Source of the DNA: Burkholderia sp. GAS332
GTDB taxonomy: Bacteria; Pseudomonadota; Gammaproteobacteria; Burkholderiales; Burkholderiaceae
DNA length: 64,000 nucleotides
Direction: 5' to 3'
NCBI GenBank assembly: GCA_900142905.1
Contig: FSRV01000001.1
Location: 3,162,001-3,226,000, forward strand
Both the position numbers and the translations under genes were made by a program. How positions within the stretch are numbered: the stretch's first letter is position 1; every line of letters starts with the position of its first letter. Shown piece by piece: positions 1 through 14,465 of the stretch. The notes beneath the pieces are model-generated. The model saw only the letters and a program-made list of their open reading frames with translations, did no database searches and was not told the origin of the DNA.

Positions 1-18
1 CTGCTGGACACAGCCGCA

Positions 19-1287
19 GTGGCGGCGCCGCTCGCCGACCCTGCTGCGGCGCAACCCGCCGGCGCGGGCGCCGTACTGAGCACGGTGGAATCAGAGCCCG
101 CATGGCGCGCCGCCGCGCAGCGCTGCACCGCCGTGGCCGCGCAGTTCGCCGATCCGGTGGACCGCGAAGCACGCTTTCCCCACGAGGCTTTCGACGCGCT
201 CAAGCGCGAACGTTTGCTGTCGGCGATGGTGCCGGCCGCGTTCGGCGGTGCGGGACTCTCGCTCGCGGATGTCGGCGCGATCTGCGAAATGCTCGCGCAG
301 GGCTGCGCCTCGACCGCGATGGTGTACGCGATGCATCAGATCCAGGTGGCCTGCATCGAGGCGCACGGCAGCGAGTCGGCATGGCACCGGCAGTTGCTCG
401 CGCAACTGGTCGAGCATCAATGGCTGCTGGCTTCGGCGACCTCCGAAGAAACCATCGGCGGCAATATGCGCACCAGCGCCTGCTCGGTCGAACTCGACGG
501 AGAGCCGGGCAACCCACGCTTTCGCATCGAAAAGCTCGCGCCGACGATCTCCTACGGCGCGCACGCCGACGGCATTCTGGTCACCGCGCGCCGCACCGCT
601 GAATCGGCCGCGGCCGACCAGGTGCTGATCGTCGCGTTACGGGAAGAAACACAACTGGAAAAGCGGGGCGGCTGGGATTCGATGGGCATGCGCGGCACCT
701 GCAGCGAGGGCTTCCGGCTGGTCGCCACGGGACTCGCCGAGCAGATCCTGCCGACACCCTTCGCCGATATCGCCGATCAGACCATGCTGCCGGTCTCGCA
801 CACACTGTGGGCCTCGGTATGGACCGGCGTGGCCATTGACGCGGTCAATCGCGCGAAAGCCTTCTTCCGTGCGCAGGCCCGCTCGAAGCCCGGCGCGATT
901 CCGCCGGCCGGCCTGCGCCTCGCCGAAGCGGTCGGTCTGCTGCAGATGATGCAGGCGCGCCTGTCGGTCGCGCTCGAAGCGGCGCGCACCGCCCACCACG
1001 CGCGGCACGGCGGCTGCCAGGCCGATGCGCCGCTCTCGGCGATGCTCGGCTTCGCCTCCGACATGAATACGCTGAAGACCAGCATCTCGACCACGGCGCT
1101 GCAAGTCGTGCAGGAAGTGCTGATGATCTGCGGCATGGCGGGCTACAAGAACGGCACGGAATACAGCGTGGGACGGCATCTGCGCGACCTCTACTCCGCG
1201 CCGCTAATGATCAATAACGACCGTATCGCGCAGAACACGGCGAGCCTGTTGCTCGCACAGCGTCCTGCCACCCCGGGGAGAGCCTGA
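19..1287 (+). CDS. Acyl-CoA dehydrogenase family protein (start may lie upstream)
   Basis: This is an acyl-CoA dehydrogenase/flavin oxidoreductase-like protein of about 422 residues. It has the helical N-terminal domain, a central beta domain with the Ser/Thr-rich segment around SATSEETIGGN, and a C-terminal helical bundle ending near ICGMAGYKNGTEYSVGR. Members of the family oxidise acyl thioesters with FAD. The next gene is an amino acid:carrier-protein ligase, so the substrate may be an aminoacyl- or acyl-carrier thioester rather than a free CoA ester; that is inference. The first start codon is a GTG at 19, but the frame is open to the left edge, so the true start, and perhaps a carrier-protein gene, may be outside the window. 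The stop is 1 bp before the next ATG, so the genes are clearly cotranscribed. Confidence 0.8.
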   Translation: MAAPLADPAAAQPAGAGAVLSTVESEPAWRAAAQRCTAVAAQFADPVDREARFPHEAFDALKRERLLSAMVPAAFGGAGLSLADVGAICEMLAQGCASTAMVYAMHQIQVACIEAHGSESAWHRQLLAQLVEHQWLLASATSEETIGGNMRTSACSVELDGEPGNPRFRIEKLAPTISYGAHADGILVTARRTAESAAADQVLIVALREETQLEKRGGWDSMGMRGTCSEGFRLVATGLAEQILPTPFADIADQTMLPVSHTLWASVWTGVAIDAVNRAKAFFRAQARSKPGAIPPAGLRLAEAVGLLQMMQARLSVALEAARTAHHARHGGCQADAPLSAMLGFASDMNTLKTSISTTALQVVQEVLMICGMAGYKNGTEYSVGRHLRDLYSAPLMINNDRIAQNTASLLLAQRPATPGRA

Positions 1288-1288
1288 C

Positions 1289-2353
1289 ATGAACACGATG
1301 ACCGATACCGCCGCGCTGGCCGCTGCCGCCGCGGAACCCGCGGCGCCGACTTTCCGCGACGAACTGCTGGCCGCGGGCCTGCTGATCGATACCGGTGAAA
1401 ACGGCCTGTACGGCCGCAGCCAGATTTTCGAAGACGTGGTGGAGCGCCTGAACGTGGCGATCACGCATCTCGGCGCGGACCAGCAGCCGGAAGTGCTGCG
1501 CTTTCCGCCCGCCATGCGCCGCACCGATTTCGAAGACAGCGAATACCTGAAGAGCTTCCCGAACCTCGCCGGCACGATCCACTCGTTCTGCGGCAACGAC
1601 ATGGGCCACCAGCGCCTGTTGCGCGCACTCGACGACGCCATAACCGAGCGCGACGACGAACGCAGCGAAGAATGGATGGCGCAGCAGAAACCGACTCACG
1701 TGGTCCTCACGCCGGCCGCCTGCTATCCGATCTATCCGGTGATGGCGCGGCGCGGCCCGCTGCCCACCGGCGGCCGCACGATCGATGTGCTGTCGTATTG
1801 CTTCCGCCACGAACCGTCGCTCGATCCGGGCCGCATGCAGATGTTCCGGCAGCGCGAATACGTGCGCCTCGGCAGCGCCGAGCAGGTGATGGCGTTCCGG
1901 CAAATGTGGGTGGAGCGCGGCTCGCTGCTGATTACGCTACTGCAGCTGCCGGTGGAAGTGGATCTCGCCAACGATCCGTTCTTCGGCCGCGGCGGCAAGA
2001 TCGTCGCCGATAGCCAGCGTGCCCAGGCGCTCAAATTCGAACTGCTGATTCCGGTCGCCGACCCGCGCGGCAAGACCGCATGCCTCTCGTTCAACTATCA
2101 CATGGACCACTTCGGCGCGATCTGGAAAATCGCCTGCGAAGACGGCGCGGTGGCGCACACGGGTTGCGTCGGCTTCGGCATGGAGCGCATCACGTTGGCG
2201 CTGTTCCGTCATCATGGGCTCGATGTCAACGCGTGGCCGGACGATGTGCGCGCGCTGCTGTGGGGCGGCACCGAGGCGCGCGTGGCGCACGGCATGCATT
2301 CTATGCAGCCGGCCCCCACCGTGGTTGCGGAGGGTGCCGGAGATCGCGCATGA
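1289..2353 (+). CDS. Amino acid--[carrier protein] ligase, class II aaRS-like
   Basis: The protein (354 residues) is a truncated class II aminoacyl-tRNA synthetase-like enzyme related to the catalytic core of atypical archaeal SerRS. Motif 2 is visible at residues 172-190 (CFRHEPS, then FRQREYVRLG) and motif 3 at 295-304 (GFGMERITLA). The likely zinc ligands are Cys145, Glu175 and Cys293, as in characterised members from Bradyrhizobium. There is no tRNA-binding domain. Known relatives activate a small amino acid with ATP and load it on the phosphopantetheine of a carrier protein instead of tRNA. No carrier protein is visible here, so it may be just upstream of the window. The gene sits between an acyl-CoA dehydrogenase and a DUF1839 gene and overlaps the latter by ATGA. 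Amino acid specificity cannot be read from the sequence. Confidence 0.88.
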   Translation: MNTMTDTAALAAAAAEPAAPTFRDELLAAGLLIDTGENGLYGRSQIFEDVVERLNVAITHLGADQQPEVLRFPPAMRRTDFEDSEYLKSFPNLAGTIHSFCGNDMGHQRLLRALDDAITERDDERSEEWMAQQKPTHVVLTPAACYPIYPVMARRGPLPTGGRTIDVLSYCFRHEPSLDPGRMQMFRQREYVRLGSAEQVMAFRQMWVERGSLLITLLQLPVEVDLANDPFFGRGGKIVADSQRAQALKFELLIPVADPRGKTACLSFNYHMDHFGAIWKIACEDGAVAHTGCVGFGMERITLALFRHHGLDVNAWPDDVRALLWGGTEARVAHGMHSMQPAPTVVAEGAGDRA

Positions 2354-3411
2354 ATCCCTCCCCGATCCCCGTGCCGAAGGGCGTGCCATCCCCCTTCCCG
2401 TTGCCCCGCCGGCTCGATCTGCCGGCTGCGGGCGGCGCGGCTGCGCCCGCAGCGGCGCTGCGCCAGCACGCGCCGCACGCGCTGCATCAAGGCGAGCGCG
2501 TCTGGCAGGAGACCAACTGCTACATCGACCTGTGGATTGAACTGCTGCACGGCTTCGGGCTCGATCCGCGCGCGGCGCTCGGCTTTACCGTCACGCAGGA
2601 CTTCGAAGGCGACCAGTTCACATTCTTCAAATTCCCGCTCGAAGACCTCGAGCGGCTGTACGGCACCCAGGTGCAGGAACTGGCGATCTACGACTCGCTC
2701 GAAGCCCGCGTGCTCGCGCAAACCTCGCGCGGCCATACCGTGCTGGTGGAAGTGGACGGCTATTACCTGCCGAATACGCGCGCCACATCGTATCGGCGCG
2801 AACATCCGAAAACCACGGTAGGGATCGACTTTATCGATCCCACGGCGCACCGCCTCGGCTATTTTCACAACACGGGCTATTACCTGCTCGACGGCGAAGA
2901 CTACGACGGCGTGTTTCGCAAACTGCCGCAATTCGCGCAGCAGCCCGATCTGCTGTTTCCGTACGTCGAATTCGCCAAGCAGGCGCGGCCCGCGCTGGAG
3001 GGCACCGCGCTCGCCGAAGCATCGGCGGAATTGTTGTGCGCGCATCTAAACCGGCGGCCGCTGACCAATCCGATCTCGCAGTGGCGGGCCGTGTTTCCCG
3101 CGCATCTCGATACGCTGCTTGAACGCGGCGAGGCATTCTTCCATCCGTACTCGTTCAACCTGATGCGGCAGCTTGGCGCGAACTTCGAGTTGCTCTCGAA
3201 GTATCTGTTGTGGCTCTCCGCGCAAGGCTTCGAGGTGCCGGCGTCGATCCCGGCGGCGGCGCAAAGCATCGCATCGGAGTCGATGGTGATGCAGTTCCGG
3301 CTCGTGCGGGCCATCGCACGCGGACGCCGCGATTCGTGTGAAGACTGTTTCGACGTGCTCGAAAGCGCTTATGAAAAGACGCTGCCACCGCTTGCCGCAC
3401 TTGTGCTTTAA
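2350..3411 (+). CDS. DUF1839 family protein
   Basis: This 353-residue protein belongs to the DUF1839 family, recognised by the segments ETNCYIDLWIELLHGFG, DFEGDQFTFFKFP and VEVDGYYLPNT. I place the start at ATG 2350, which overlaps the upstream stop as ATGA; the frame is open further upstream, but only inside the ligase gene. The family repeatedly accompanies carrier-protein aminoacylating ligases and is thought, without proof that I know of, to act on the loaded carrier. Cys57, His152 and Asp160 could be a papain-like catalytic set, which would fit an acyl or aminoacyl transferase. That assignment is inference from residue type and spacing only. No signal peptide or membrane segment is seen, so a cytoplasmic role is expected. 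Confidence 0.8.
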   Translation: MNPSPIPVPKGVPSPFPLPRRLDLPAAGGAAAPAAALRQHAPHALHQGERVWQETNCYIDLWIELLHGFGLDPRAALGFTVTQDFEGDQFTFFKFPLEDLERLYGTQVQELAIYDSLEARVLAQTSRGHTVLVEVDGYYLPNTRATSYRREHPKTTVGIDFIDPTAHRLGYFHNTGYYLLDGEDYDGVFRKLPQFAQQPDLLFPYVEFAKQARPALEGTALAEASAELLCAHLNRRPLTNPISQWRAVFPAHLDTLLERGEAFFHPYSFNLMRQLGANFELLSKYLLWLSAQGFEVPASIPAAAQSIASESMVMQFRLVRAIARGRRDSCEDCFDVLESAYEKTLPPLAALVL

Positions 3412-3441
3412 CGAGCTCGAGTCGAGCTTCAGGAAATCGCC

Positions 3442-6087
3442 GTGGATGCGCTGACGACTGATCGGTTACCGGATGAAGGCGACTCGCATCCGGCGCCGTT
3501 TGCCAGGACGGCTGAAGCTGCCGGCATGACCATGAGCTTGAGCATGACCATGGCCGTTGCCGCATCCAAGGCCCAATCCCAGGAACCTCAAGACCTCTGG
3601 CCACAGCCACTCGACACGGGTTGGCAGTGCGTCAGCACGCCGGCCGGGGCCTGCGCGTCACCCGCCGACTTGCCTGCGCAGGGCTGGCTCGCCGCACAAG
3701 TCCCCGGCACGGTGGCGAGCGCGCGCCGTGCCGCAGGCCTGCTGGACACCGCGAATCCGCCACCACTCGCCTTCGACGATCACTGGTACCGGCTCACGCT
3801 GACCGGCACCGGCAAACGCCGTTTGCGCCTGCACGGCCTCGCCACGCTCGCCGAAGTCTGGCTCGACGGCATCGAGCGCCTGACGTCGGATTCGATGTTC
3901 GTCGCGCACGATCTCGACATCGAACTGCACGGCAGCGCGACCCTCGCGCTGTGCTTTCGCTCGCTGACTCCCGCGCTGGCGGCAAAACGCACACGTGCTC
4001 GCTGGCGGCCGCGGCTCGTCACACCCTCCACCTTGCGCAACGTGCGCACCACCCTGCTCGGCCATATGCCGGGATGGTGTCCATCGGTGCAGGCAGTGGG
4101 TCCATGGCGCCCGATTGAAATGTTGAGCGACGTGCCGCACGCATTCGACACGATTGATCTGACAAGCCGACTCGAAGACGACGACGGCGTTGTTTCGTTG
4201 ACGCTACATTTCCTGCATCCGCATGACGTCGACACGTGCGCGGCTTCGTTGAATTGCGGGGGCGTTGTTTCGTCTTTGCAATGGAGCGATGCATATACAC
4301 TGACCGGCAGCGTGCGTGTACCGCATGCCGAACGCTGGTGGCCGCACACGCATGGCGAGCCCACTTTATATCCTCTGACGTTGCAGCTTGATGACGAGCC
4401 CGCGATATCCCAATCATTGGGATCGGTCGGCTTCCGCCGCATCGAAGTGGATCGCGGCGCAGACGGTACGGGCTTCGCATTACGCGTGAATGACACGCCG
4501 GTGTTTTGCCGCGGCGCCTGCTGGACCAGCGCGGATCTCGTCACATTGAGCGGCACCGAGGCGCAATTGCGCCACGCTTTCGCGCTCGCTCGCGATGCAG
4601 GCATGAACATGCTGCGGGTCGGCGGCACGATGGTGTACGAGTCGGACACCTTCTATTCACTTGCTGACGAATACGGCCTGCTCGTCTGGCAAGACTTTGC
4701 GCTGGCGAATTTCGACTATCCGAACGATGCTGTCTTCAGCGCGTCCATCGAGCGCGAAGCGACGCAATTCCTGACCCGCACGCGGCGCTTCGCATCGCTC
4801 GCGGTGCTGTGCGGCGGCAGCGAAGTCGACCAGCAGGCGGCCATGTTCGGCCTGCCCGCTTCGATGCGCGCGCAACCACTCTTTACCGAACAGTTACCCG
4901 CCATCGTGGCGTGCGAGCGGTCGGACGTGCCGTATGTGAGCAATTCGCCCTCGGGCGGCGCGTGGCCGTTTTCGACTAATGAGGGCATCACGCATTACTA
5001 CGGCGTGGGCGCCTATCAACGCCCGCTCGACGACGTGCGTCGCTCGCAGGTCCGTTTCGCCGCCGAATGCCTCGCCTTCGCCAACGTGCCCGACGACGCC
5101 ACCTTGCACGACGCGCTGGGCACGATCCATCTGCACGATCCGCGCTGGAAAGCGGCCGTGCCGCGCGACCCCGGCGCCGGCTGGGATTTCGACGACGTGC
5201 GCGATCATTATCTTCAGACGCTTTACGGCGTCGATCCGGCGCGCTTGCGTTACGAAGACCCCGAGCGCTATCTGGATCTGTCGCGCGCGGTGGTCGCCGA
5301 GTTGATGGGCGACGTGTTCGCCGAATGGCGGCGCGCCGGCTCGACGTGCGGCGGCGCGCTGGTCTGGCAGCTCCAGGATCTGCGCCCCGGCGCAGGCTGG
5401 GGCTTGATCGACGCCACAGGACGGCCTAAAAGCGCCCTGCACGGCCTCGCGCGGACGCTGCAACCCATCCAGGTGGTCATGACCGACGAAGGCCTCAACG
5501 GCCTTGATATTCATCTGCTGAACGAACGTGCGGAACCGTTGCGCGCGCAACTGGAGCTGGTCTGCCTGCGCGACGGCAGCGTCAAGGTCGCGTCGGCCAA
5601 CCGCGCGGTCGAACTGGCGCCGCACAGCTCGCAGCGCATCAGCGCGGCCGGGTGCCTCGGCCAGTTCTTCGATTTCACGCACGCGTACCGCTTCGGTCCG
5701 CGCGGCCACGACGTCACGATTGCGACGCTGCGCGATCCAGCGAGCGGCCGGATTGTTTCAGAAGCGGTGCATCTGCCGGAGCGGCGCGCAGACGCTCGTC
5801 ACGACCTCGGCCTCACGGTCGGCGCCGAGCGCACCGCCGACGGCTGGCAGCTGATCATCGAGGCAAAGCGCTTTGCACGCTTCGTTCATATCATTGACAC
5901 GCATTACCGCGCGGCGCACGACTGGTTCCATCTGCCGCCAAACCGCCCCTGTGCCGTGCCGCTCCTCCCCATTGAACAATTCGTTGCGCGTGCATCTAAT
6001 ACGGCGTTTAAAGCTGACGCAACATGCGAAGCACCCGCTGGCGAAGTGCGCGCGATCAATGCGATTTCCGCCACCTTTTACGGCTGA
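3442..6087 (+). CDS. Glycoside hydrolase family 2, beta-mannosidase-like
   Basis: This 881-residue protein has the GH2 layout: an N-terminal jelly-roll sugar-binding domain (about 60-220), an immunoglobulin-like domain (about 230-335), a TIM barrel (about 340-670) and C-terminal beta domains. Candidate catalytic glutamates are Glu461 in CGGSE (acid/base) and Glu542 in FAAECLAF (nucleophile). Both differ from the usual beta-mannosidase context, so the substrate is open. The start is a GTG at 3442 with AGGAAA about 6 bases upstream. I see no convincing signal peptide, so it probably acts in the cytoplasm. It lies 30 bp behind DUF1839 on the same strand and closes the operon, which suggests that the carrier-protein pathway makes or trims a glycoconjugate, though this is only inferred. 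Confidence 0.8.
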   Translation: MDALTTDRLPDEGDSHPAPFARTAEAAGMTMSLSMTMAVAASKAQSQEPQDLWPQPLDTGWQCVSTPAGACASPADLPAQGWLAAQVPGTVASARRAAGLLDTANPPPLAFDDHWYRLTLTGTGKRRLRLHGLATLAEVWLDGIERLTSDSMFVAHDLDIELHGSATLALCFRSLTPALAAKRTRARWRPRLVTPSTLRNVRTTLLGHMPGWCPSVQAVGPWRPIEMLSDVPHAFDTIDLTSRLEDDDGVVSLTLHFLHPHDVDTCAASLNCGGVVSSLQWSDAYTLTGSVRVPHAERWWPHTHGEPTLYPLTLQLDDEPAISQSLGSVGFRRIEVDRGADGTGFALRVNDTPVFCRGACWTSADLVTLSGTEAQLRHAFALARDAGMNMLRVGGTMVYESDTFYSLADEYGLLVWQDFALANFDYPNDAVFSASIEREATQFLTRTRRFASLAVLCGGSEVDQQAAMFGLPASMRAQPLFTEQLPAIVACERSDVPYVSNSPSGGAWPFSTNEGITHYYGVGAYQRPLDDVRRSQVRFAAECLAFANVPDDATLHDALGTIHLHDPRWKAAVPRDPGAGWDFDDVRDHYLQTLYGVDPARLRYEDPERYLDLSRAVVAELMGDVFAEWRRAGSTCGGALVWQLQDLRPGAGWGLIDATGRPKSALHGLARTLQPIQVVMTDEGLNGLDIHLLNERAEPLRAQLELVCLRDGSVKVASANRAVELAPHSSQRISAAGCLGQFFDFTHAYRFGPRGHDVTIATLRDPASGRIVSEAVHLPERRADARHDLGLTVGAERTADGWQLIIEAKRFARFVHIIDTHYRAAHDWFHLPPNRPCAVPLLPIEQFVARASNTAFKADATCEAPAGEVRAINAISATFYG

Positions 6088-6719: not shown

Positions 6720-7454
6720 ATGTTGACACTTCAATCAGATCTGCACGGCAACCATTTGCTCGGCGCATTACCGTCCCACGAATGGCAAGCCCTTGCCCCG
6801 CATCTCGAGCTGGTTCATCTGCGCACCGAACAACTGCTGTGCGACTCTGGTCAACGCATCCATCACGTCTACTTCCCGACCACGGCGATCATCTCGATGC
6901 TCTCGACGATGGAAGACGGCAGCTCGGTCGAAATCGCCGCAGTCGGCCGCGAAGGCATGACCGGCGTGCCGGTGCTGACAGGCGGCGAAACCATGCCGAA
7001 CCGCGTACAGGTGCAATGCGCCGGCTTCGCCTACCGGATGAGCGCACAGGCGCTCAAGCAGCAATTCGCACGCTCTGACTTCCTGCGCCGCCTGATGCTG
7101 CTGTACATGCACGCACTGCTCACGCAAGTCGCGCAAACCGCGGCCTGCAATCGCCACCACGCGTTGAACAAGCAACTGTGCCGGTGGTTGCTGATCGAAG
7201 TGGACCGCGTGGCATCGAACGATCTGACGGTCACCCAGCAACTGATCGCCGACATGCTCGGCGTGCGCCGCGAAGGCATCACCGAAGCGGCCGGCAAGTT
7301 GCACGACGAAGGCCTGATTCATCACAGCCGCGGCCACATCAAGGTACTCGATCGCAAAGGTCTCGAAGCACGTGCCTGCGAATGCTACGGCCTCGTCAAG
7401 CGCGAATTCGATCGCCTGCTGCCGCGCCTGCGTCAGGCCGAAACCGTCGAGTAA
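6720..7454 (+). CDS. Crp/Fnr family transcriptional regulator
   Basis: This 244-residue protein has an N-terminal cyclic-nucleotide-binding-like beta-roll (about 10-130), a dimerisation helix, and a C-terminal winged helix (about 150-220) with the recognition region around TVTQQLIADMLGVRREGI. The Fnr-type N-terminal cysteine cluster is absent, so oxygen sensing through an iron-sulphur cluster is unlikely. It is the first gene of a same-strand run of polysaccharide genes and lies 45 bp before the sugar transferase, so it probably controls exopolysaccharide synthesis. Its ligand is unknown; cyclic nucleotides, including cyclic di-GMP, are possibilities by analogy with Burkholderia polysaccharide regulators of this family. 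A sigma-54-like promoter is found upstream. Confidence 0.85.
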   Translation: MLTLQSDLHGNHLLGALPSHEWQALAPHLELVHLRTEQLLCDSGQRIHHVYFPTTAIISMLSTMEDGSSVEIAAVGREGMTGVPVLTGGETMPNRVQVQCAGFAYRMSAQALKQQFARSDFLRRLMLLYMHALLTQVAQTAACNRHHALNKQLCRWLLIEVDRVASNDLTVTQQLIADMLGVRREGITEAAGKLHDEGLIHHSRGHIKVLDRKGLEARACECYGLVKREFDRLLPRLRQAETVE

Positions 7455-7499: not shown

Positions 7500-8885
7500 A
7501 TGTTCAGGAATACTGCGCGATGTCTCGACGCACTCTTTGTGATTGCGGGCGGGCTGCTCGCTCATTGGATGCGTTTTTCGACGCCGATCGCGTTGTCGGA
7601 CACCGAGCGTCTTCTGATCGCCTTCAACTGTGTGCTCGTGCTGCTGATGTTTCCCGGCTTCGGCGTCTATGAAACGTGGCGCGGCAAGTCGCTGCCTGCC
7701 ATGCTGTTGAGAGTCGCCGCCGCGTGGCTGGTGGTGGTCGCCACCGCCCTGCTGCTGGCGTTCACCTTGCACCGCATGGATGCGGTGTCGCGGCTATGGT
7801 TCGCGTACTCCACGCTGATCTCCGGCGCGCTGATCATCGCCACCAAGTGCCTCGTGCATGTGGCCTTGCAGAGCGTGCGCCGGCGCGGCATGAACTTCCG
7901 CACGGTCGCGATCGTCGGCGCACCCGGCTTCTCGCGTACCTTGCTCGCGCATCTCAACCATGCGCCACAAGCCGGCTTCAGGCCCGTCTGCGTCTTCGAC
8001 ACCAGCATCGAAGCGGCCGGCACCTACGGCGTGCGTCTCAATCGCCTGCCCGTGCTGACCGATCTGAATGCGTTCGCCGCCAAGGTGCGCGAAGAGCATG
8101 TGAACGAGGTGTGGCTCGCTTTACCGCTCTCAGAAGAACATATGATCTATCGCTTCACGCACATGTTCAGACATGACTTCGTGAATCTGCGCTTTATTCC
8201 CGATGTACGCAGCCTCTCGCTTTTCAACCACGCGCTGGTCGATGTCGTCGGTTTACCGACGCTCAATCTGAGCGCGACACCCGTCGCGTCGCCGCAGATG
8301 TGGCCCAAGCTGATCTTTGACCGCCTGTTCGCGGCGGCTGCGCTGCTGGTGCTCGCGCCCGTGTTCATCGCACTCGCGATCGGCATCAAGCTGAGCTCGC
8401 CGGGGCCGGTGTTCTTCCGCCAGACCCGCAAGGGCGTGGACGGCCAGCCGTTCGCGATCTACAAGTTCCGCTCGATGACCGTGCACCACGAAGCGCACGG
8501 CCAGGTCACGCAGTGCGCGCGCAATGACGCGCGCGTCACGAAGCTCGGTGGCTTCATGCGTCGCACCAGTCTCGACGAACTGCCGCAATTCCTGAACGTG
8601 CTGCTCGGCCAGATGTCGGTGGTCGGGCCGCGTCCCCATGCGGTCGAACACGACGATCTCTACAAGGATCAGGTGTACGGCTATATGAACCGCTACCGGA
8701 TCAAACCAGGCATCACCGGCTGGGCGCAGGTGAACGGCTATCGCGGTGCCACCACCAAGGTCGAAAAGATGGAGGCGCGCGTCAAGTTCGATCTCTTCTA
8801 TATCCACAACTGGTCGTTCTGGTTCGACATGAAGATCGTGTTCATCACGATTTTCAAGGGTTTCGTCGGCCGCAACGCATTCTGA
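7500..8885 (+). CDS. Undecaprenyl-phosphate hexose-1-phosphate transferase
   Basis: This 461-residue membrane protein has several N-terminal transmembrane helices (within about residues 1-115), a central nucleotide-binding-like domain, a further helix near 280-300, and the C-terminal bacterial sugar transferase domain. Diagnostic parts are the stretch from KLIFDRLF through [14 protein letters not shown], then [25 protein letters not shown] and [11 protein letters not shown]. Such enzymes, as in WcaJ and the UndP-glucose transferases, start each polysaccharide repeat by moving hexose-1-phosphate, usually glucose, from UDP-sugar to undecaprenyl phosphate at the inner membrane. It is the priming enzyme of this locus. 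The next gene starts 2 bp after its stop. The exact sugar is not readable from the sequence. Confidence 0.92.
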
Positions 8886-8887
8886 CC

Positions 8888-9841
8888 ATGCCACTTCGGA
8901 AACCGTCTGTGAAAGTGTCCGTGATCGTGCCGACGTACCGGCGCACGGCGGATCTCGCACGCTGCCTCGCGGCACTCGATGCGCAGGAGCGCCGCGCCGA
9001 CGAAGTGATCGTGATAGCCCGTCACGACGACTACGCGACGCTCGACTGGTTGCGCACGCGCGACGCGACCCGGCCCGACCCGCGCCGTTGGATCGTGCTG
9101 GTGCACAAGCCAGGCGTGGTCGCGGCCTACAACCTCGGCATCGACAGTGCAAGCGGCGACGTGCTCTGCTTCACCGACGACGACGCCGCGCCGCATTCCG
9201 ACTGGGTCGCGCGGATCACCCGCGCGTTCGACACCGATCCGGCGCTCGGCGGCCTCGGTGGACGCGACATCGTGCATGAACGCAATGGCATTCTGCAGGG
9301 GCAGAAGCCACGCGTCGGCCTCGTGCGCTGGTATGGCCGGACCATCGGCAATCACCATATCGGCCACGGCGCGGCACGCGAAGTCCAGGTGCTCAAGGGC
9401 GTCAACATGGCGTTTCGCCGCGAGGCGATCGGCACGCTGCGCTTCGATGCCCGCTTGCGAGGTACCGGCGCGCAGGTTCACTGCGAGATGGCCTTCAGTC
9501 TGGACGTGCAGCGGCGCGGCTGGACCCTGATTTACGACCCGTCGCTGCTGGTGGAGCACTTCCCGGCCCAGCGCAGCGACGAAGACCAGCGCTTCACATT
9601 TAACGACGCCGCCTTCTATAACGCGTCATTCAATCTCCGACTCATCATGTGCGAATACCTGACGCCAACCGGCCGATGGGCGTTCGTCGTTTACTCGACG
9701 CTGATCGGCGATCGTGCGGACCCGGGGTTCCTGCGCGCATTGTCGTTGGCATTCGAGCGCGGCGGCGTGGCACTCGCGCTTCGCAAATGGCGAGTTGGTT
9801 TACGCGCAATGCGCGGGGCATGGCAGGAGGCGGCGCGCTGA
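8888..9841 (+). CDS. Glycosyltransferase family 2
   Basis: This 317-residue GT-A glycosyltransferase begins with VSVIVPTYRRTADLARCLA and carries the metal/nucleotide-binding DXD-type motif as CFTDDDAAPH (about residues 95-104). A likely acceptor-side segment, LKGVNMAFRREAIG, follows. It should add a sugar to the growing lipid-linked repeat on the cytoplasmic face of the inner membrane. No transmembrane helices are evident, apart from a weak hydrophobic patch near FVVYSTLIG. It follows the priming transferase with a 2-bp gap and precedes the export lipoprotein gene by 37 bp, so it belongs to the polysaccharide operon. Donor and acceptor sugars are unknown. Confidence 0.88.
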   Translation: MPLRKPSVKVSVIVPTYRRTADLARCLAALDAQERRADEVIVIARHDDYATLDWLRTRDATRPDPRRWIVLVHKPGVVAAYNLGIDSASGDVLCFTDDDAAPHSDWVARITRAFDTDPALGGLGGRDIVHERNGILQGQKPRVGLVRWYGRTIGNHHIGHGAAREVQVLKGVNMAFRREAIGTLRFDARLRGTGAQVHCEMAFSLDVQRRGWTLIYDPSLLVEHFPAQRSDEDQRFTFNDAAFYNASFNLRLIMCEYLTPTGRWAFVVYSTLIGDRADPGFLRALSLAFERGGVALALRKWRVGLRAMRGAWQEAAR

Positions 9842-9878: not shown

Positions 9879-11075
9879 ATGACTATCAGAACGATTGCCG
9901 CAGGGCTCGCGGCCGCATCTCTGTGCGCCTGTTCTTTGGCGCCAGGACCTTATCTGGACACCAAGCGGCTGGAGCCGCCTCCTCCGCCGGAGCAGACCGC
10001 CGAAAAATTTCCGGTGCACACCATCGATGTCGGCTATTTTCGCCAGCAACGCGCCGCCGCGGTGCCGGCCGTCTGCCCGCTGTCGTGCCTGACGCCGCAG
10101 ACGCGCGGCGCCTACGACTACCGGCTTGGCATCGGCGATCAGTTGAACATCATCGTCTGGGATCACCCGGAACTGACCGGCGGTGGCACGGGCGTGGCGC
10201 CATTGCCGCTCCCCTCCATCGGCAACGGCGCCACGCCAACGCCCGGACCCACGCAGACCCAAGGCGCGACACCGATCGCACCGACGCTAACGGGCGGCGG
10301 TGAAGGCGGATTGACCGTGCGCGTCGCCAACAACGGCACGATCTTTTTCCCGCGCGTGGGCCGCATCAAGGTGCTCGGCATGACCGCGCAGCAGGTTCAG
10401 GAGTCGCTGTCGAAGGGCCTCTCGAAGACGATTCGCAATCCTCAGCTCGATGTTCGCGTGTCGGGATTCAATAGCCAATCGGTGCAGGTGACCGGCAATC
10501 TGCGCACGCCCGCCTCCGAAGCAATCACCGATTCGCCGCTGACCGTGCTCGATGCCATCAATCGCGCAGGCGGCGCGCTGCCCGACGCGGATCTACAGAA
10601 CGTGGGCGTGACCCGCGACGGCAAGCGCTACACGGTCGACGTCGCCTCGCTGCTCGAAACCGGCGATCCACAACAGAACGTGCTGCTGAAAGACGGCGAC
10701 ATCATCGATGTGCCGGATCGCTCGAACAGCCGCGTCTTCGTGCTCGGCGAAGTGAACAAGCCGACCTCGCTGCCGATGAACCGCGGCCGCCTGACGCTCG
10801 CCGATGCGCTGACCGGCGCCGGCAGTCTCGACGTCAAAACCGGCGATCCGCGTTTCGTCTACGTGGTGCGTGGCGCCGACAAGACGCTCACACCCGACGT
10901 CTATCAGCTCGATATGACCCAGGTCGACGCGTTGATGCTGATGACCAAGTTCGAACTTCAGCCGAAGGATGTGGTGTACGTGCAGGTCTCGAGCGCAGCA
11001 CGCTTTAACCGCGCCCTCGAACAGATCACGCCGACCCTGCAAGACTTGTTCTACACGGTTGAACTGGGCCGATAA
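9879..11075 (+). CDS. Polysaccharide export outer-membrane lipoprotein (Wza family)
   Basis: This 398-residue protein starts at ATG 9879; the open frame extends upstream only into the glycosyltransferase gene. A lipoprotein signal is seen, with the lipobox LCAC giving a mature Cys18. The Poly_export domain begins at YRLGIGDQLNIIVWDHPEL (about 81-99) and is followed by SLBB-type repeats (for example 165-240 and 245-330) and a C-terminal amphipathic segment. Wza proteins form the octameric outer-membrane channel for capsule or exopolysaccharide and work with the Wzc kinase encoded next. Between the end of the first motif and the following strand (VANNGTIFFPRVG) there is a Gly/Pro/Thr-rich insertion at about residues 101-144 that I do not expect in standard Wza. 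Confidence 0.9.
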   Translation: MTIRTIAAGLAAASLCACSLAPGPYLDTKRLEPPPPPEQTAEKFPVHTIDVGYFRQQRAAAVPAVCPLSCLTPQTRGAYDYRLGIGDQLNIIVWDHPELTGGGTGVAPLPLPSIGNGATPTPGPTQTQGATPIAPTLTGGGEGGLTVRVANNGTIFFPRVGRIKVLGMTAQQVQESLSKGLSKTIRNPQLDVRVSGFNSQSVQVTGNLRTPASEAITDSPLTVLDAINRAGGALPDADLQNVGVTRDGKRYTVDVASLLETGDPQQNVLLKDGDIIDVPDRSNSRVFVLGEVNKPTSLPMNRGRLTLADALTGAGSLDVKTGDPRFVYVVRGADKTLTPDVYQLDMTQVDALMLMTKFELQPKDVVYVQVSSAARFNRALEQITPTLQDLFYTVELGR

Positions 11076-11098: not shown

Positions 11099-13489
11099 AT
11101 GAGTACGTACGACATGCTGGACCATGGACCGGCGCCCAGCAGCGACGAAGATGCGGTGATGCGCGATTTGCTGCGCATGATCATGGACCAGATCTGGTGG
11201 GTGATCGGCATTGCCGGCTGTGTGATTCTCGCCGCGGTGATCTATACGAAGCTCGCCACGCCGATCTATTCCGCCGACGCCCTGCTTCAGGTCGACACGC
11301 AACCCATCAACAACGGTTCGCAAAATCAGAGCACGCCGTCGCTCGTGCCGTCGGTGGGCCCGATGCGCACCGACGCGGAAATCGAAATCATCAAGAGCCG
11401 CGCGGTGGTCGAGCCGGTGGTCGAGCAGTTCAAGCTGAACTTCAGCACGGGCGCCAAAACCATGCCGGTACTCAGCAAGATCTCGTCATGGTTCGCGCAT
11501 CCCGGCCGTCCACTCGGCGCTGCGTTCGGCATGGATTCCTATGCGTGGGGTGGCGAGCAATTCGAGGTCGCGTCGATCACGGTGCCGAAATCGCTGGAAG
11601 GCGCGCGCCTGACATTGCAAGTGCTCGATTACGGCCGCTATGAATTGACCGACTCGTTCGGGCAGAAGATCCTCACCGGGGTGGCGGGTCAGGAAGCAAG
11701 CGGCAATGACGTCACGCTGTTCGTCAGAACGCTGGTGGCCCGTCCGGGCACTGAGTTCTACGTGACGCGCTTCAACCAACTGGACGCGGTCGCCGCGCTT
11801 TCTTCCGGATTGCAGGTGAGCGAGAAAGGCCGGGACACCGGCGTCGTGCAACTGTCGTACATGGGCACCGATCCGCACGCGATCACCGAGATCACCAATG
11901 CGGTGGCGGCGTCGTATCTGGCACAACGCACCGAACGCGCACAGGAAGAAGCGAGCCACATGCTGAGCTTCCTGAACAGCGAGTTGCCGCGCCTGCGCGA
12001 CGAAGTGAAGAAGACTGAGACCGCGTTGTCGGAGTATCAGTCGAAAACCGGTTCGTTCCAGCCGACCCAGGAGGCCGGCGTCTACCTCGCCGGTGGTCTG
12101 GACTACGAGAAGCAGATTGCGACGCTACGCATCCAGCGCGCGCAACTGCTGCAGCGCTTCACTGAGGAAAGCCCGGAAGTGCAGCAGGTGGACACGCAAC
12201 TGGCGGCGATGTCGCGCGAAAAAGCCCGCTTCGAAGAGCATTTCAACACACTGCCGAGCTCCGAACGCAATGCCCTCTCCTTGCAGCGCGACGCGAAGGT
12301 TGCCGAGGAAATTTATGTGGCCTTGCTGAACAAAACCCAGGAGTTGTCGATCTCTCGTGCCGGCACGATCGGCAACGTGCATATCATCGACCAGGCCTTG
12401 CTGCCGTCTCAGCCGGTGCGGCCGAAGTCGGCGCTGATCATTTCGGCGGGCACGCTGCTCGGCATCATCGGCGGCGTTCTGTTCGCGTTCTGCCGCCGCA
12501 CGTTCTTTACCGGCGTGGCCGATCCCGAGTTCGTCGAGCGGCGCTTCCAGTTGCCGATCTTCGGCTCGATCGCCTTCAGCCCGGAACAGGCGCGCAGCGA
12601 CCGGCAATTGAGCGCCGCGCGCACCGCGGCCCTGCCTGGCCCCAGGTCGACGCCGACCGAAGTGCTAGCGGAGCCGTCGGGCGTCATGCGAATGCTTCGG
12701 CCGGGTTCCGCAGCGGCCCGCCAAGGCAGCGTACCGGTCGGCACGCAAACCGTCATTGCGTCGAGCAAGGCGCCGATGCGGCCGCTGCTGGCAAAGACCC
12801 ATCCGTACGACTCGACGGTGGAAGGTCTGCGTGGGCTGCGCGCCACGCTGCAATTCGGCCTGATCGACGCACCCAACCGCATCGTGGCAATCACGAGCCC
12901 GGCGCCCTCGGACGGCAAAAGCTTTCTGTGCGCGAACCTCGCCGCACTGATCGCGGAATCAGGCAAGCGCGTGCTGCTGATCGACGCCGATCTGCGGCGT
13001 GGACGCCTCGCGCAGTATCTCGGCCGCTCGCCCCACGGCGGCTTGACTGAACTGCTGACGGGTCAGGTCGATCTTGAAGTCGCGGCGCGCGCCACGGGCG
13101 TGGAGGGGTTGCACTTCATCGCGGCGGGCGCCTATCCGCCGAATCCGTCGGAGATTCTGACGTCGCCGCGCTTCGGTGAAATTCTCGCACGCTTCGAGCA
13201 GGAGTTCGATCTGGTGATCGTCGATACGCCGCCGCTGCTGGCGGTGGCCGATGCGGCGGTGATTGCGCATCTCGCCGGTTCGACCGTGCTGGTGATGCGG
13301 GCCGGCGCTCACACCGAGGGCCACGTGGCCGACGCGCTGAAGAAATTGCGGCGCGCACGGGCCCGGGTGGTAGGTGGCGTGATGAACGCAGTGCCGCTCA
13401 AGAGCCACAACAAGAACGGCACGTACGATTATGCGTATGCGTACACCTACTCCGCCGGCGATCCGCTCGATACTCATGGATCACGATAG
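11099..13489 (+). CDS. Polysaccharide co-polymerase / tyrosine autokinase (Wzc family)
   Basis: This 796-residue protein has an N-terminal Wzz-type domain with a transmembrane helix near 40-60, a long periplasmic coiled-coil part, a second helix near 445-465, and a cytoplasmic BY-kinase domain. Walker A is APSDGKSFLCANLA, Walker A' is VLLIDADLRRG and Walker B is LVIVDTPPLLAV. The C-terminus carries a tyrosine cluster (YDYAYAYTYS), the usual autophosphorylation site. It controls polymerisation and export together with the Wza-like protein, 23 bp upstream. No cognate low-molecular-weight phosphatase gene, such as Wzb, is found in the window. A strong terminator-like hairpin follows the stop codon, so the operon probably ends here. 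Confidence 0.92.
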   Translation: MSTYDMLDHGPAPSSDEDAVMRDLLRMIMDQIWWVIGIAGCVILAAVIYTKLATPIYSADALLQVDTQPINNGSQNQSTPSLVPSVGPMRTDAEIEIIKSRAVVEPVVEQFKLNFSTGAKTMPVLSKISSWFAHPGRPLGAAFGMDSYAWGGEQFEVASITVPKSLEGARLTLQVLDYGRYELTDSFGQKILTGVAGQEASGNDVTLFVRTLVARPGTEFYVTRFNQLDAVAALSSGLQVSEKGRDTGVVQLSYMGTDPHAITEITNAVAASYLAQRTERAQEEASHMLSFLNSELPRLRDEVKKTETALSEYQSKTGSFQPTQEAGVYLAGGLDYEKQIATLRIQRAQLLQRFTEESPEVQQVDTQLAAMSREKARFEEHFNTLPSSERNALSLQRDAKVAEEIYVALLNKTQELSISRAGTIGNVHIIDQALLPSQPVRPKSALIISAGTLLGIIGGVLFAFCRRTFFTGVADPEFVERRFQLPIFGSIAFSPEQARSDRQLSAARTAALPGPRSTPTEVLAEPSGVMRMLRPGSAAARQGSVPVGTQTVIASSKAPMRPLLAKTHPYDSTVEGLRGLRATLQFGLIDAPNRIVAITSPAPSDGKSFLCANLAALIAESGKRVLLIDADLRRGRLAQYLGRSPHGGLTELLTGQVDLEVAARATGVEGLHFIAAGAYPPNPSEILTSPRFGEILARFEQEFDLVIVDTPPLLAVADAAVIAHLAGSTVLVMRAGAHTEGHVADALKKLRRARARVVGGVMNAVPLKSHNKNGTYDYAYAYTYSAGDPLDTHGSR

Positions 13490-13746: not shown

Positions 13747-14169
13747 TTACAGAAACGCGCTGACGTCAGTATGAAAGCGCACGGCCAGCGCCTTCGCCAC
13801 CTTTTTGCTGATGGCGCGTCGGCCCGCGAGAATATCGCTCACTACGGTAGGCGACGCGATACCGATCAGATCCTTCTGCTTGAGCCCGTGCGTTTCCAGC
13901 AGATGCCGCAACACTTCGCGCGGCTCCGCTTTCGGGATCGTCACGTTGCTCGCTTCCCAGCTTCCGATCAGGTCGGTGACGATCGCGAACAGATCGGCCA
14001 GCGGATCTTCCTCGCTACCGTTCAGGTGATCGGCGAGCGCGTTGGCGAGCCGCACCATCGTCTGATAGTCCTGCTCGTTGCGAATGGGCGTAATCGGCAA
14101 CTGGGTTTGCAGTGCAGCCCAGGTTTGAGCGATGTCGGGAAAGGCTCCCGGAAGGCGATCGGCATTCAT
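13747..14169 (-). CDS. higA: HigA-type antitoxin, helix-turn-helix
   Basis: This 140-residue protein has a C-terminal helix-turn-helix (GLKQKDLIGIASPTVVSDIL, then AGRRAISKKVAKALAVRF) and an N-terminal part that resembles HigA antitoxins of the E. coli type. It binds and neutralises the HigB toxin and represses the operon. I choose ATG 14169 over the upstream TTG at 14193, because ATG 14169 overlaps the toxin stop as ATGA, which is typical coupling, and GAGGAAG lies upstream. The toxin gene comes first in the operon, as in other higBA loci. The pair sits inside the polysaccharide locus, between wzc and a glycosyltransferase, pointing to insertion of a mobile addiction module. Confidence 0.85.
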   Translation of the reverse strand: MNADRLPGAFPDIAQTWAALQTQLPITPIRNEQDYQTMVRLANALADHLNGSEEDPLADLFAIVTDLIGSWEASNVTIPKAEPREVLRHLLETHGLKQKDLIGIASPTVVSDILAGRRAISKKVAKALAVRFHTDVSAFL

Positions 14170-14465
14170 GAGTTTAAATTCTTCCTCGTCCAAAGGTCGT
14201 ATTCCGCATGCGTCAGTACGTGACGAACGAACAACGACTGCCTGTTGTAGTGAATCGCCGCGATGATCCGGAACCGGTTGCCGCCCACGTCGAAAACCGT
14301 GTATTGCGGCGGCACGTAGTCCACGCCCGCGAACGTCTGCTTCAGGTCGTTATAGCCATACGCGAGGCATGCCTGCGCCAGTGAGTACCACGTCAACAGC
14401 GCACTGCGCGCCTCCGGATGTCTCTTTATGAAGTCCAGCAACGCTTTCTTTGAAATGACCCGCAT
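14166..14465 (-). CDS. higB: HigB-type toxin (mRNA interferase family)
   Basis: This 99-residue protein shows the HigB toxin pattern: MRVISKKALLDF at the N-terminus, a central WYSLAQ-type helix, then YTVFDVGGNRFRIIAAIHYN and a C-terminal FVRHVLTHAEYD segment. HigB toxins of this type cut mRNA at the ribosome. The start at ATG 14465 has GAGGAAA seven bases upstream; a longer frame upstream has no such site. It is followed by higA with an ATGA overlap. Transcription probably starts near 14597 from a promoter embedded in the inverted repeat at 14606-14644. The basic residues conserved in the family are present, so it looks intact and active. Confidence 0.85.
   Translation of the reverse strand: MRVISKKALLDFIKRHPEARSALLTWYSLAQACLAYGYNDLKQTFAGVDYVPPQYTVFDVGGNRFRIIAAIHYNRQSLFVRHVLTHAEYDLWTRKNLNS

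What the first reader, a model, noticed from the sequence alone, without database searches (positions are those of the whole stretch)
19..6087. Operon around a carrier-protein aminoacylating aaRS homologue
Four tightly linked genes combine an acyl-CoA dehydrogenase, an aaRS-like amino acid:carrier-protein ligase, DUF1839 and a GH2 enzyme. The ligase has class II motifs 2 and 3 and the Cys145/Glu175/Cys293 zinc set but no tRNA-binding domain. Its relatives load amino acids on carrier proteins. The set implies a pathway that charges an amino acid on a carrier, oxidises or modifies it, transfers it, and acts on a glycoside. I know of no defined product for such operons.
Basis: partly seen in the sequence, partly recalled or inferred. 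Interest (0 to 1): 0.72.

Follow-up and report, generated by a model that had tools for sequence, protein, structure and literature searches.

The report
Amino-acid carrier cassette in biofilm-sugar clusters
Five neighbouring bacterial genes look like a small assembly line that loads an amino acid onto a carrier protein, alters it and hands it to a sugar; in many relatives they sit among genes for biofilm sugars, which suggests what this enzyme family, known since 2010 but without a known job, may be for.

Summary
The DNA just left of the window encodes an 83-aa carrier protein whose stop codon overlaps the start of the flavoenzyme gene. The unit is five genes: carrier, acyl-CoA-dehydrogenase-like flavoenzyme, aaRS-like amino acid:carrier ligase, DUF1839, GH2.

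Of 123 distinct loci examined, 107 hold all five, 104 of them in the same order and strand, in beta- and alphaproteobacteria and two Myxococcaceae MAGs. Here the block lies in an exopolysaccharide cluster. Export or priming genes lie within 10 kb in 53 of 80 named relatives; in 27 none was seen, eight of these on short stretches. In nine distinct loci it sits between homologues of the biofilm regulators BerA and BerB. A published screen in a related cluster found an acyl-CoA-dehydrogenase gene in the matching position needed for full biofilm formation.

Most likely the cassette makes a modified aminoacyl-carrier thioester that DUF1839, papain-like and weakly similar to the acyltransferase BtrH, passes to a surface-sugar precursor. 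The idea is not new: a 2010 note added in proof predicted it. New here are scale, the Bep/bec link, DUF1839 evidence and a sixth partner. Product and amino acid are unknown.

The parts
1..1287 (+). Acyl-CoA-dehydrogenase-fold flavoenzyme, 432 aa; its ATG is 12 nt left of window base 1 (L002:13989). Apparently without either usual catalytic Glu; probably oxidises carrier-bound aminoacyl (inferred). Directly before it, outside the window at L002:13741-13992 (+), lies the carrier protein (ACP), 83 aa, serine S35 in a G-L-S-S motif, its stop overlapping this gene's start.
   Evidence: Flavoenzyme: PF02771; matches to 7p98, DnmZ, nitrososynthases, DszC and also ordinary acyl-CoA dehydrogenases; H116, E153, R412 identical in 102 of 102. 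Carrier; NF005480 126 bits, cut-off 72; PF00550; S35 identical in 102 of 102 sequences collected, 89 distinct.
1289..2353 (+). aaRS-like amino acid--[acyl-carrier-protein] ligase, 354 aa.
   Evidence: NF005479 532 bits; Bll0957 structures, E 1.2e-86 and 7.3e-85; C145/E175/C293 invariant in A1.
2350..3411 (+). DUF1839, 353 aa; papain-like according to PMC10318531, candidate carrier-to-acceptor acyltransferase (inferred).
   Evidence: PF08893 451 bits; BtrH_N weakly matched by 8 of 28 members, best E 0.0069, not by the window's own copy; C57 in 98 of 109, H173 in 109 of 109.
3442..6087 (+). GH2, beta-mannosidase-like, 881 aa or shorter. Cell compartment not tested. A looser sixth partner (HYD, fused double alpha/beta-hydrolase with Cys in the GxCxG motif of its C-terminal half) lies outside the window at L002:497-2704 (-); in other genomes it stands beside GH2 or the ligase.
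   Evidence: GH2: nearest PDB 2vjx, E 6.5e-43; E461 and E542 identical in 94 of 94 and 95 of 95 ungapped of 98 sequences. HYD; C506 identical in 35 of 35 sequences; neighbours.
6720..7454 (+). Context: Crp/Fnr-family regulator.
   Evidence: PF13545, PF00027.
7500..8885 (+). Context: undecaprenyl-phosphate glucose phosphotransferase (WcaJ), priming enzyme of the exopolysaccharide cluster.
   Evidence: TIGR03023 505 bits, cut-off 411.
8888..9841 (+). Context: family 2 glycosyltransferase.
   Evidence: PF00535.
9879..11075 (+). Context: Wza-like polysaccharide export protein.
   Evidence: PF02563, SLBB.
11099..13489 (+). Context: Wzc-like chain-length/tyrosine-kinase protein.
   Evidence: PF02706, GNVR, WZC_N.

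Best explanation
A five-gene cassette makes an amino-acid-derived acyl group on a dedicated carrier protein and hands it to a saccharide, most often a precursor of an exopolysaccharide. Steps: (1) the ligase adenylates a small amino acid and loads the carrier's phosphopantetheine thiol (shown by others for relatives, inferred here); (2) the flavoenzyme oxidises the carrier-bound aminoacyl group, perhaps as a monooxygenase rather than as an alpha,beta-dehydrogenase (inferred, weak); (3) DUF1839 takes the acyl group on its Cys and passes it to an amine or hydroxyl of a sugar, as BtrH does in butirosin synthesis (inferred from weak similarity); (4) the GH2 removes or checks a sugar on that intermediate (inferred, weakest step); (5) the double hydrolase, where present, is a thioesterase or transacylase for the same carrier (inferred). 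In the window's genome the acceptor would be the polymer made by the surrounding WcaJ/Wza/Wzc cluster.
For: Carrier upstream, its stop overlapping the next start. Ligase and carrier score over the cut-offs of NF005479 and NF005480.

All five genes in 107 of 123 distinct loci, 104 in the same order and strand. In 299 Burkholderiaceae genomes ligase and DUF1839 co-occur: 129 both, 7 ligase only, 12 DUF1839 only, 151 neither (own genome included, lists compared by eye; the genomes are related).

Polysaccharide link: WcaJ, Wza or Wzc homologues within 10 kb in 53 of 80 named loci, WcaJ alone in 49. Rough control from one genome: 6 PF02397 genes in 10.4 Mb, so about 1.2% of it lies within 10 kb of one. 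The arrangement differs between lineages, including Rhizobiales loci where HYD is followed by a sugar transferase. Ten of 12 sequences tested (nine distinct: L036 and L109 are one contig) hold the cassette between BerA-like and BerB-like regulators.

Genetics: becG, an acyl-CoA-dehydrogenase gene in the matching position of the related bec cluster, is biofilm-defective when disrupted (PMC5507470).

DUF1839: BtrH_N is the only other Pfam family hit by more than one of 28 members. Each of the 11 Cys-less copies (ten distinct) has a Cys-bearing copy at the same locus. It stays with carrier or flavoenzyme in three loci of genomes without a ligase match (L143, L145, L146).
Against: In 27 of 80 named loci no WcaJ/Wza/Wzc was seen within 10 kb (eight of the 27 are stretches under 17 kb). 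Annotated copies in Azospirillum brasilense, R. rhizoryzae, Mycetohabitans and Caballeronia show none in the stretch, though L134 has a glycosyltransferase and L137 an acyltransferase, an ArnT-like and an LTA-synthase-like gene. So the acceptor need not be an exopolysaccharide.

The Bep polymer was reported without any substituent (PMC7084887), though extracted and measured in 0.3 M NaOH/NaOD, which would strip esters (an amide should survive).

becF, by position the carrier gene, was in the library but not a hit. Transposon effects may be polar. Beyond ManC the B. cenocepacia stretch L133 does not follow the published bep gene order.

The BtrH_N match is weak and DUF1839 matched no solved structure by sequence with confidence. 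Ordinary acyl-CoA dehydrogenases score nearly as well as monooxygenases against the flavoenzyme, and the top hit 7p98 is named a dehydrogenase. The best-studied ligase, Bll0957, is very close to one in a separate clade whose five loci lack detectable DUF1839 and GH2, so its substrate cannot be carried over. The amino acid is unknown.
Confidence: 0.55

Rival explanations
1. The cassette makes a small diffusible, glycosylated amino-acid metabolite (a signal or protective compound) that is co-regulated with biofilm sugars but not attached to them; GH2 processes its sugar.
For: The five-gene block also occurs where no WcaJ/Wza/Wzc was seen (27 of 80 loci lack them), for instance in Azospirillum brasilense Sp7, and just after nif genes on a Rhizobium gallicum plasmid.
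Against: Strong link to WcaJ/Wza/Wzc in Burkholderiaceae and to a sugar transferase in some Rhizobiales. Transporter genes lie near in some of the seven annotated loci, but not the same one.
Confidence: 0.25
2. The acceptor is a lipid or lipopolysaccharide rather than an exopolysaccharide, as with AlmEFG glycine on Vibrio lipid A.
For: Elsewhere in the same genome a second NF005480 carrier lies between an AMP-type amino acid ligase and a HYD copy, in a row with a VirJ-like gene and mprF, which aminoacylates lipid. PMC2922099 speaks of liposaccharide genes. L137 has an ArnT-like gene nearby.
Against: No lipid A or LPS gene is a steady neighbour in the loci seen; WcaJ, Wza and Wzc are. The mprF neighbour concerns another carrier and another ligase.
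Confidence: 0.12
3. A catabolic or redox side pathway (amino acid oxidation on a carrier) with no glycan product; GH2 is a bystander.
For: Carrier and flavoenzyme are the most constant partners (79 of 80 each) and occur with the Bll0957-type ligases without DUF1839 and GH2.
Against: GH2 is part of the block in 107 of 123 distinct loci and keeps both catalytic Glu residues.
Confidence: 0.06

Closest known systems
Amino acid:[carrier protein] ligases of Mocibob et al. 2010/2013 (Bll0957; Atu2573 recalled)
   Same: Same family (NF005479), same lack of a tRNA-binding domain, carrier gene nearby; about 320 residues alignable to 3mey/4h2w.
   Different: L168, very close to 3mey (714 bits over 327 residues), and four similar loci hold carrier or flavoenzyme but no detectable DUF1839 or GH2; four of them form a separate clade, L168 was thinned from the tree. 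The papers themselves were not read (one look-up not held); known from PMC9437257 passages and recall.
Surface-sugar aminoacylation predicted by Aravind, de Souza and Iyer 2010 (PMC2922099, note added in proof)
   Same: Same neighbourhood (ACP, monooxygenase/dehydrogenase, conserved unknown ORF, glycosidase, liposaccharide genes) and same prediction: an amino acid ligated to the amino group of a cell-surface sugar.
   Different: The text of that note gives no BerA/BerB or biofilm link and no double hydrolase, and calls the unknown ORF (Atu2574) a ligase; it is probably DUF1839, but Atu2574 was not checked here and the additional file was not read.
AlmEFG (Vibrio lipid A glycine) and Dlt (teichoic acid D-alanine)
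   Same: Works alike: ATP-dependent ligase, carrier protein, transfer to a surface polymer (PMC3783018 and PMC12930378 passages).
   Different: AMP-binding-type ligases and other transferases; no flavoenzyme, no glycosidase (recalled). Not the same ligase family.
BtrH of butirosin biosynthesis
   Same: Papain-like acyl carrier protein:aminoglycoside acyltransferase (PMC10318531 passage).
   Different: Only a weak profile match. PMC10318531 reports a C-(T/S)-H order of catalytic residues for DUF1839.
Bep (B. cenocepacia) and bec exopolysaccharide clusters
   Same: Cassette lies between BerA-like and BerB-like regulators in nine distinct loci.
   Different: The window's own flank (L002, -14 to +6 kb) has no BerA or BerB match; its cluster has another arrangement.

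Membership tests
Amino acid--[acyl-carrier-protein] ligase (NF005479) | Score over the curated cut-off | tested here: met
   531.8 bits against 357.
Amino acid--[acyl-carrier-protein] ligase (NF005479) | Cys/Glu/Cys zinc set and class II motifs, no tRNA-binding domain | tested here: met
   Aligned with Bll0957; C145, E175, C293 invariant in A1. Zinc role recalled.
Amino acid--[acyl-carrier-protein] ligase (NF005479) | Carrier protein nearby with a phosphopantetheine serine | tested here: met
   S35 in 102 of 102.
Amino acid--[acyl-carrier-protein] ligase (NF005479) | Aminoacylates the carrier, not tRNA | not testable with these tools
   Needs purified protein.
Acyl-CoA dehydrogenase | Acyl-CoA dehydrogenase domains | tested here: met
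   PF02771 54 bits, over cut-off; PF00441 19.5 bits, below 22.4.
Acyl-CoA dehydrogenase | Catalytic Glu at the MCAD Glu376 or IVD Glu254 position | tested here: not met
   In the alignment to 7p98 the query has Ile where 7p98 has Thr; that this is the MCAD Glu376 position, and Ser at the IVD position, rest on recalled MCAD/IVD sequences placed by hand. Filed as fold only.
BtrH acyltransferase (PF14399) | Profile match over the curated cut-off | tested here: not met
   8 of 28 DUF1839 members match, best E only 0.0069, the window's protein not at all. 'Works like', not 'is'.
Papain-like fold (DUF1839) | Catalytic Cys and His | tested here: met
   C57 in 98 of 109, the other 11 paired with a Cys copy; H173 in 109 of 109. 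Which residues are catalytic is inferred; the fold was not modelled.
GH2 beta-mannosidase | Acid/base and nucleophile Glu | tested here: met
   E461 and E542 aligned to 2vjx and invariant; their roles in 2vjx recalled. Substrate not testable.
Exosortase A-associated hydrolases 1/2 (TIGR03100/03101) | Over curated cut-offs, with an exosortase in the genome | tested here: not met
   83 and 104 bits, below 168 and 203; no PF09721 match in the genome at E 0.001.
AlmEFG / Dlt | AMP-binding-type ligase | tested here: not met
   The window's ligase matches class II aaRS-like models only.
Bep/bec exopolysaccharide cluster | BerA-like and BerB-like regulators on either side | tested here: not met
   Met in ten of 12 sequences tested, not in the window's flank L002 nor in L105.

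The most novel reading that the evidence does not exclude
A third, convergent way for bacteria to put amino acids on surface polymers: an aaRS-derived ligase and a flavin monooxygenase-like enzyme make an oxidised aminoacyl-carrier thioester, and a papain-fold transferase (DUF1839) hands it to the repeat unit of biofilm exopolysaccharides such as Bep and bec, whose published structure (Bep) may have missed an ester-linked group because alkali was used.
Probability: 0.3. Interest if true: 0.78.

Novelty: new member of a known kind. Interest (0 to 1): 0.55.

Why it matters
These ligases have solved structures and a reported activity, but the purpose of carrier aminoacylation was still called unknown in 2022 (PMC9437257, passages). 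The evidence here points to genes that can be deleted and a polymer that can be analysed, so the question becomes testable. If right, a biofilm polysaccharide carries an amino-acid-derived group that alkaline extraction could remove, and DUF1839 gains a function.

Tried and rejected
Exosortase/PEP-CTERM system: considered because the double hydrolase resembles exosortase A-associated hydrolases 1 and 2; rejected for membership, scores below cut-off and no exosortase match in the genome.

Sigma-54 control of the cassette: -24/-12-like sites upstream of ACP in 6 of 122 cases against about 2% in shuffles (about 2.4 expected); none in the window; dropped as unconvincing.

True acyl-CoA dehydrogenase: doubted because the usual catalytic Glu seems missing, not excluded.

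A cytoplasmic GH2: I first read it so from N-termini printed, but those were cut about 30 residues before the match and no leader prediction was run; the claim is withdrawn.

Chance neighbours: rejected.

Amino acid preference from sequence: not attempted. Structure of DUF1839 and HYD: prediction was never available, so no fold comparison was made.

Six of the 129 loci were duplicates. L052 has only a partial ligase match. The tree used 62 of 130 ligase rows after near-identical ones and matches of 250 aa or less were left out. Neighbours of loci with ligase but without the full block included glycosyltransferases, ManC, Wzx-like, cellulase-like and AMP-binding genes and a c-di-GMP enzyme; not followed further.


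Full report
WHAT IS THERE. The window's first 6.1 kb carry four genes on the + strand: an acyl-CoA-dehydrogenase-like protein, an amino acid--[acyl-carrier-protein] ligase (NF005479, 532 bits, cut-off 357), DUF1839 (450 bits) and a GH2 enzyme. Gaps are +1, -4 and +30 nt. The window is G000:C1:3162001-3226000 of a 10.4-Mb genome. The DNA to its left was fetched; window coordinates are L002 coordinates minus 14000.

THE BLIND TEST. It is there: 83 aa at L002:13741-13992, PP-binding domain, NF005480 126 bits against a cut-off of 72, with its stop codon overlapping the ATG of the flavoenzyme. The flavoenzyme frame thus has an ATG 12 nt left of the window; GTG 19 is internal. The serine motif is G-L-S-S, not D-S-L; that serine is the same in all 102 sequences collected, 89 of them distinct.

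CONSERVATION. A profile search for the ligase in named genomes returned the best 80 of at least 569 relatives: Paraburkholderia, Caballeronia, Burkholderia, Cupriavidus, Ralstonia, Azospirillum, Pannonibacter, Rhizobium, Myxococcaceae MAGs and others. In these 80, ACP is found in 79, the flavoenzyme in 79, DUF1839 in 77, GH2 in 75, all five in 75. All five genes are in 107 of the 123, and 104 of those have the same order and strand (113 and 110 of 129 with duplicates). Of the three exceptions, L042 and L120 have DUF1839 on the other strand and GH2 in pieces or copies, and L163 shows DUF1839 in two pieces. In 299 Burkholderiaceae genomes, the own one included, ligase and DUF1839 occur together in 129, ligase alone in 7, DUF1839 alone in 12, neither in 151 (compared by eye; the genomes are related, so this is no test of independence). 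In a class-wide sample 7 of 274 had a ligase match, 4 over the cut-off (own genome included); in a sample of the order of Rhizobium sp. Leaf371, 52 of 249, 48 over the cut-off.

POLYSACCHARIDE LINK. In the window the block is followed by a Crp-family regulator, WcaJ (505 bits), a glycosyltransferase, Wza-like and Wzc-like genes. To the left lie glycosyltransferases and a Wzy-like gene on the other strand, and further left a Wzx-like gene. Among the 80 named loci, 53 have WcaJ, Wza or Wzc homologues within 10 kb; in 27 none was seen, eight of these on stretches under 17 kb. As a rough yardstick, the own genome holds six PF02397 genes, so about 1.2% of it lies within 10 kb of one; WcaJ was found in 49 of 80. 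Gene arrangement differs between Paraburkholderia, Burkholderia and Cupriavidus, and two Rhizobiales loci have HYD followed by a sugar transferase, with a Wzy-like gene or a glycosyltransferase near. Against this, annotated copies in Azospirillum brasilense, R. rhizoryzae, Mycetohabitans and Caballeronia show no such genes in the stretch, though a glycosyltransferase (L134) and an acyltransferase, an ArnT-like and an LTA-synthase-like gene (L137) are there.

BEP AND BEC. In B. cenocepacia (L133) the order is Crp-family gene, ACP, flavoenzyme, ligase, DUF1839, GH2, then a sigma-54 regulator with a VpsR domain, a GNAT gene and ManC. PMC9684580 (Table 2 passage) lists BCAM1349 as berA (CRP/FNR), BCAM1342 as berB (sigma-54) and BCAM1330-1341 as bep. 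PMC3584217 (table passage) lists 1341 as a COG2153 acyltransferase, 1340 as ManC, 1334 as a TIGR03100 hydrolase. The cassette thus fills the slot BCAM1343-1348 by position. Locus tags themselves were not read, L133 is another strain, six tags face five cassette genes, and beyond ManC the order in L133 does not follow the bep table. No paper in the library names BCAM1343-1348. Of 12 sequences tested, 10 have BerA-like and BerB-like genes on either side of the cassette (nine distinct; L036 and L109 are the same contig of Paraburkholderia ginsengisoli, the others tested positive are Burkholderia); L105 and the window's own flank do not. In L107 the order regulator, ACP, flavoenzyme, ligase, DUF1839, GH2, HYD, BerB-like matches the six genes becF-becK between a cNMP-binding and a sigma-54 gene in the bec cluster of PMC5507470 (sections 16 and 17 read whole). 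There a transposon screen hit 15 of the 18 bec genes in its first, visual round; becM and becO were not in the library and becF was in it but not hit. becG, named acyl-CoA dehydrogenase, was among the mutants studied further, all with at least a 40% decrease in biofilm. The names of becF and becH-K were not seen; their identity is inferred from position. becF, by position the carrier, was not a hit, and polar effects are possible.

THE PARTS. Ligase: aligned to Bll0957 over about 320 residues. In a tree of 62 of 130 rows, L166 and L169-L171 stand apart with 100/100 support, in loci without detectable DUF1839 and GH2; L168, very close to 3mey, has the same make-up but was thinned from the tree. 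Flavoenzyme: best profile hits are 7p98 (named a dehydrogenase), DnmZ and nitrososynthases, with a butyryl-CoA dehydrogenase, DszC and many ordinary dehydrogenases close behind. Ile stands where 7p98 has Thr and, by recall, MCAD has its catalytic Glu. H116, E153 and R412 are invariant in 102 sequences. DUF1839: PMC10318531 (passages) places it in the papain-like fold and guesses glycan processing. Here C57 is kept in 98 of 109 copies (91 of 101 distinct), and each of the 11 Cys-less copies (ten distinct), most in Cupriavidus/Ralstonia loci, has a Cys-bearing copy at the same locus. At E up to 10, BtrH_N is the only other Pfam family matched by more than one of 28 members (8, best 0.0069, not the window's copy). 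GH2: nearest to a beta-mannosidase, both Glu that align with its catalytic pair invariant; its compartment was not tested.

A SIXTH PARTNER. A double alpha/beta-hydrolase lies beside GH2 in Azospirillum, Mycetohabitans and R. rhizoryzae, in the last on the other strand, and in the same cluster 11 kb left of ACP in the window's genome. It is within 10 kb in 23 of 80 named loci, and overlaps the ligase gene where DUF1839 and GH2 are missing (L049, L050). Its C-terminal half has Cys in the GxCxG motif in 35 of 35; the N-terminal half has Arg or Gly there. A second copy in the same genome lies beside another NF005480 carrier, an AMP-type amino acid ligase, a VirJ-like gene and mprF.

MECHANISM. 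Reported by others: ligases of this family load amino acids on carriers. Inferred: flavoenzyme oxidation on the carrier, DUF1839 transfer to a sugar, GH2 action on the same intermediate. I hold the scheme at 0.55. The main rival, a small diffusible metabolite, is kept at 0.25 because in a third of the named loci no polysaccharide export or priming gene was seen nearby.

PRIOR WORK. The scheme is not new. Searches of the open-licence library that bear on this: DUF1839: one paper, PMC10318531; BCAM1343-1348: none; two of ligase name, exopolysaccharide, DUF1839: none. I therefore score novelty as a new member of a known kind and interest 0.55.

Noticed in passing
G000:C1:3064.4-3072.5 kb (L175:8397-16527, - strand): Second carrier system in the same genome: mprF, a VirJ-like gene, an AMP-type amino acid adenylation ligase, an NF005480 carrier (58% identical to the first) and a double hydrolase.
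   Followed up: partly
L173:1-14472: On Rhizobium gallicum plasmid pRgalR602b the cassette follows nifDKENX/fdxB and a gene annotated as exopolysaccharide production repressor, and is followed by an ACC deaminase.
   Followed up: no
L041, L042, L051 (same contig as L101), L094, L095, L096, L101, L102, L114, L119, L135: One DUF1839 copy has lost its Cys (Arg, Gln or Ser) while a second, Cys-bearing DUF1839 stands in the same locus.
   Followed up: partly
L143, L145, L146: Exopolysaccharide-type loci with DUF1839 and carrier and/or flavoenzyme in genomes without a ligase match; another enzyme may supply the acyl group.
   Followed up: no
L035:8916-10899: Two ligase genes in tandem with no carrier, flavoenzyme, DUF1839 or GH2 match in the 20-kb stretch, next to an Acyl_transf_3 gene.
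   Followed up: no
L168:11665-14535: The locus with the ligase very close to Bll0957 also holds a PAS-GGDEF-EAL protein.
   Followed up: no
window 13747-14193, - strand: 148-aa ORF that looks to the eye like an XRE/HigA-type antitoxin; no Pfam match at 1e-5.
   Followed up: no
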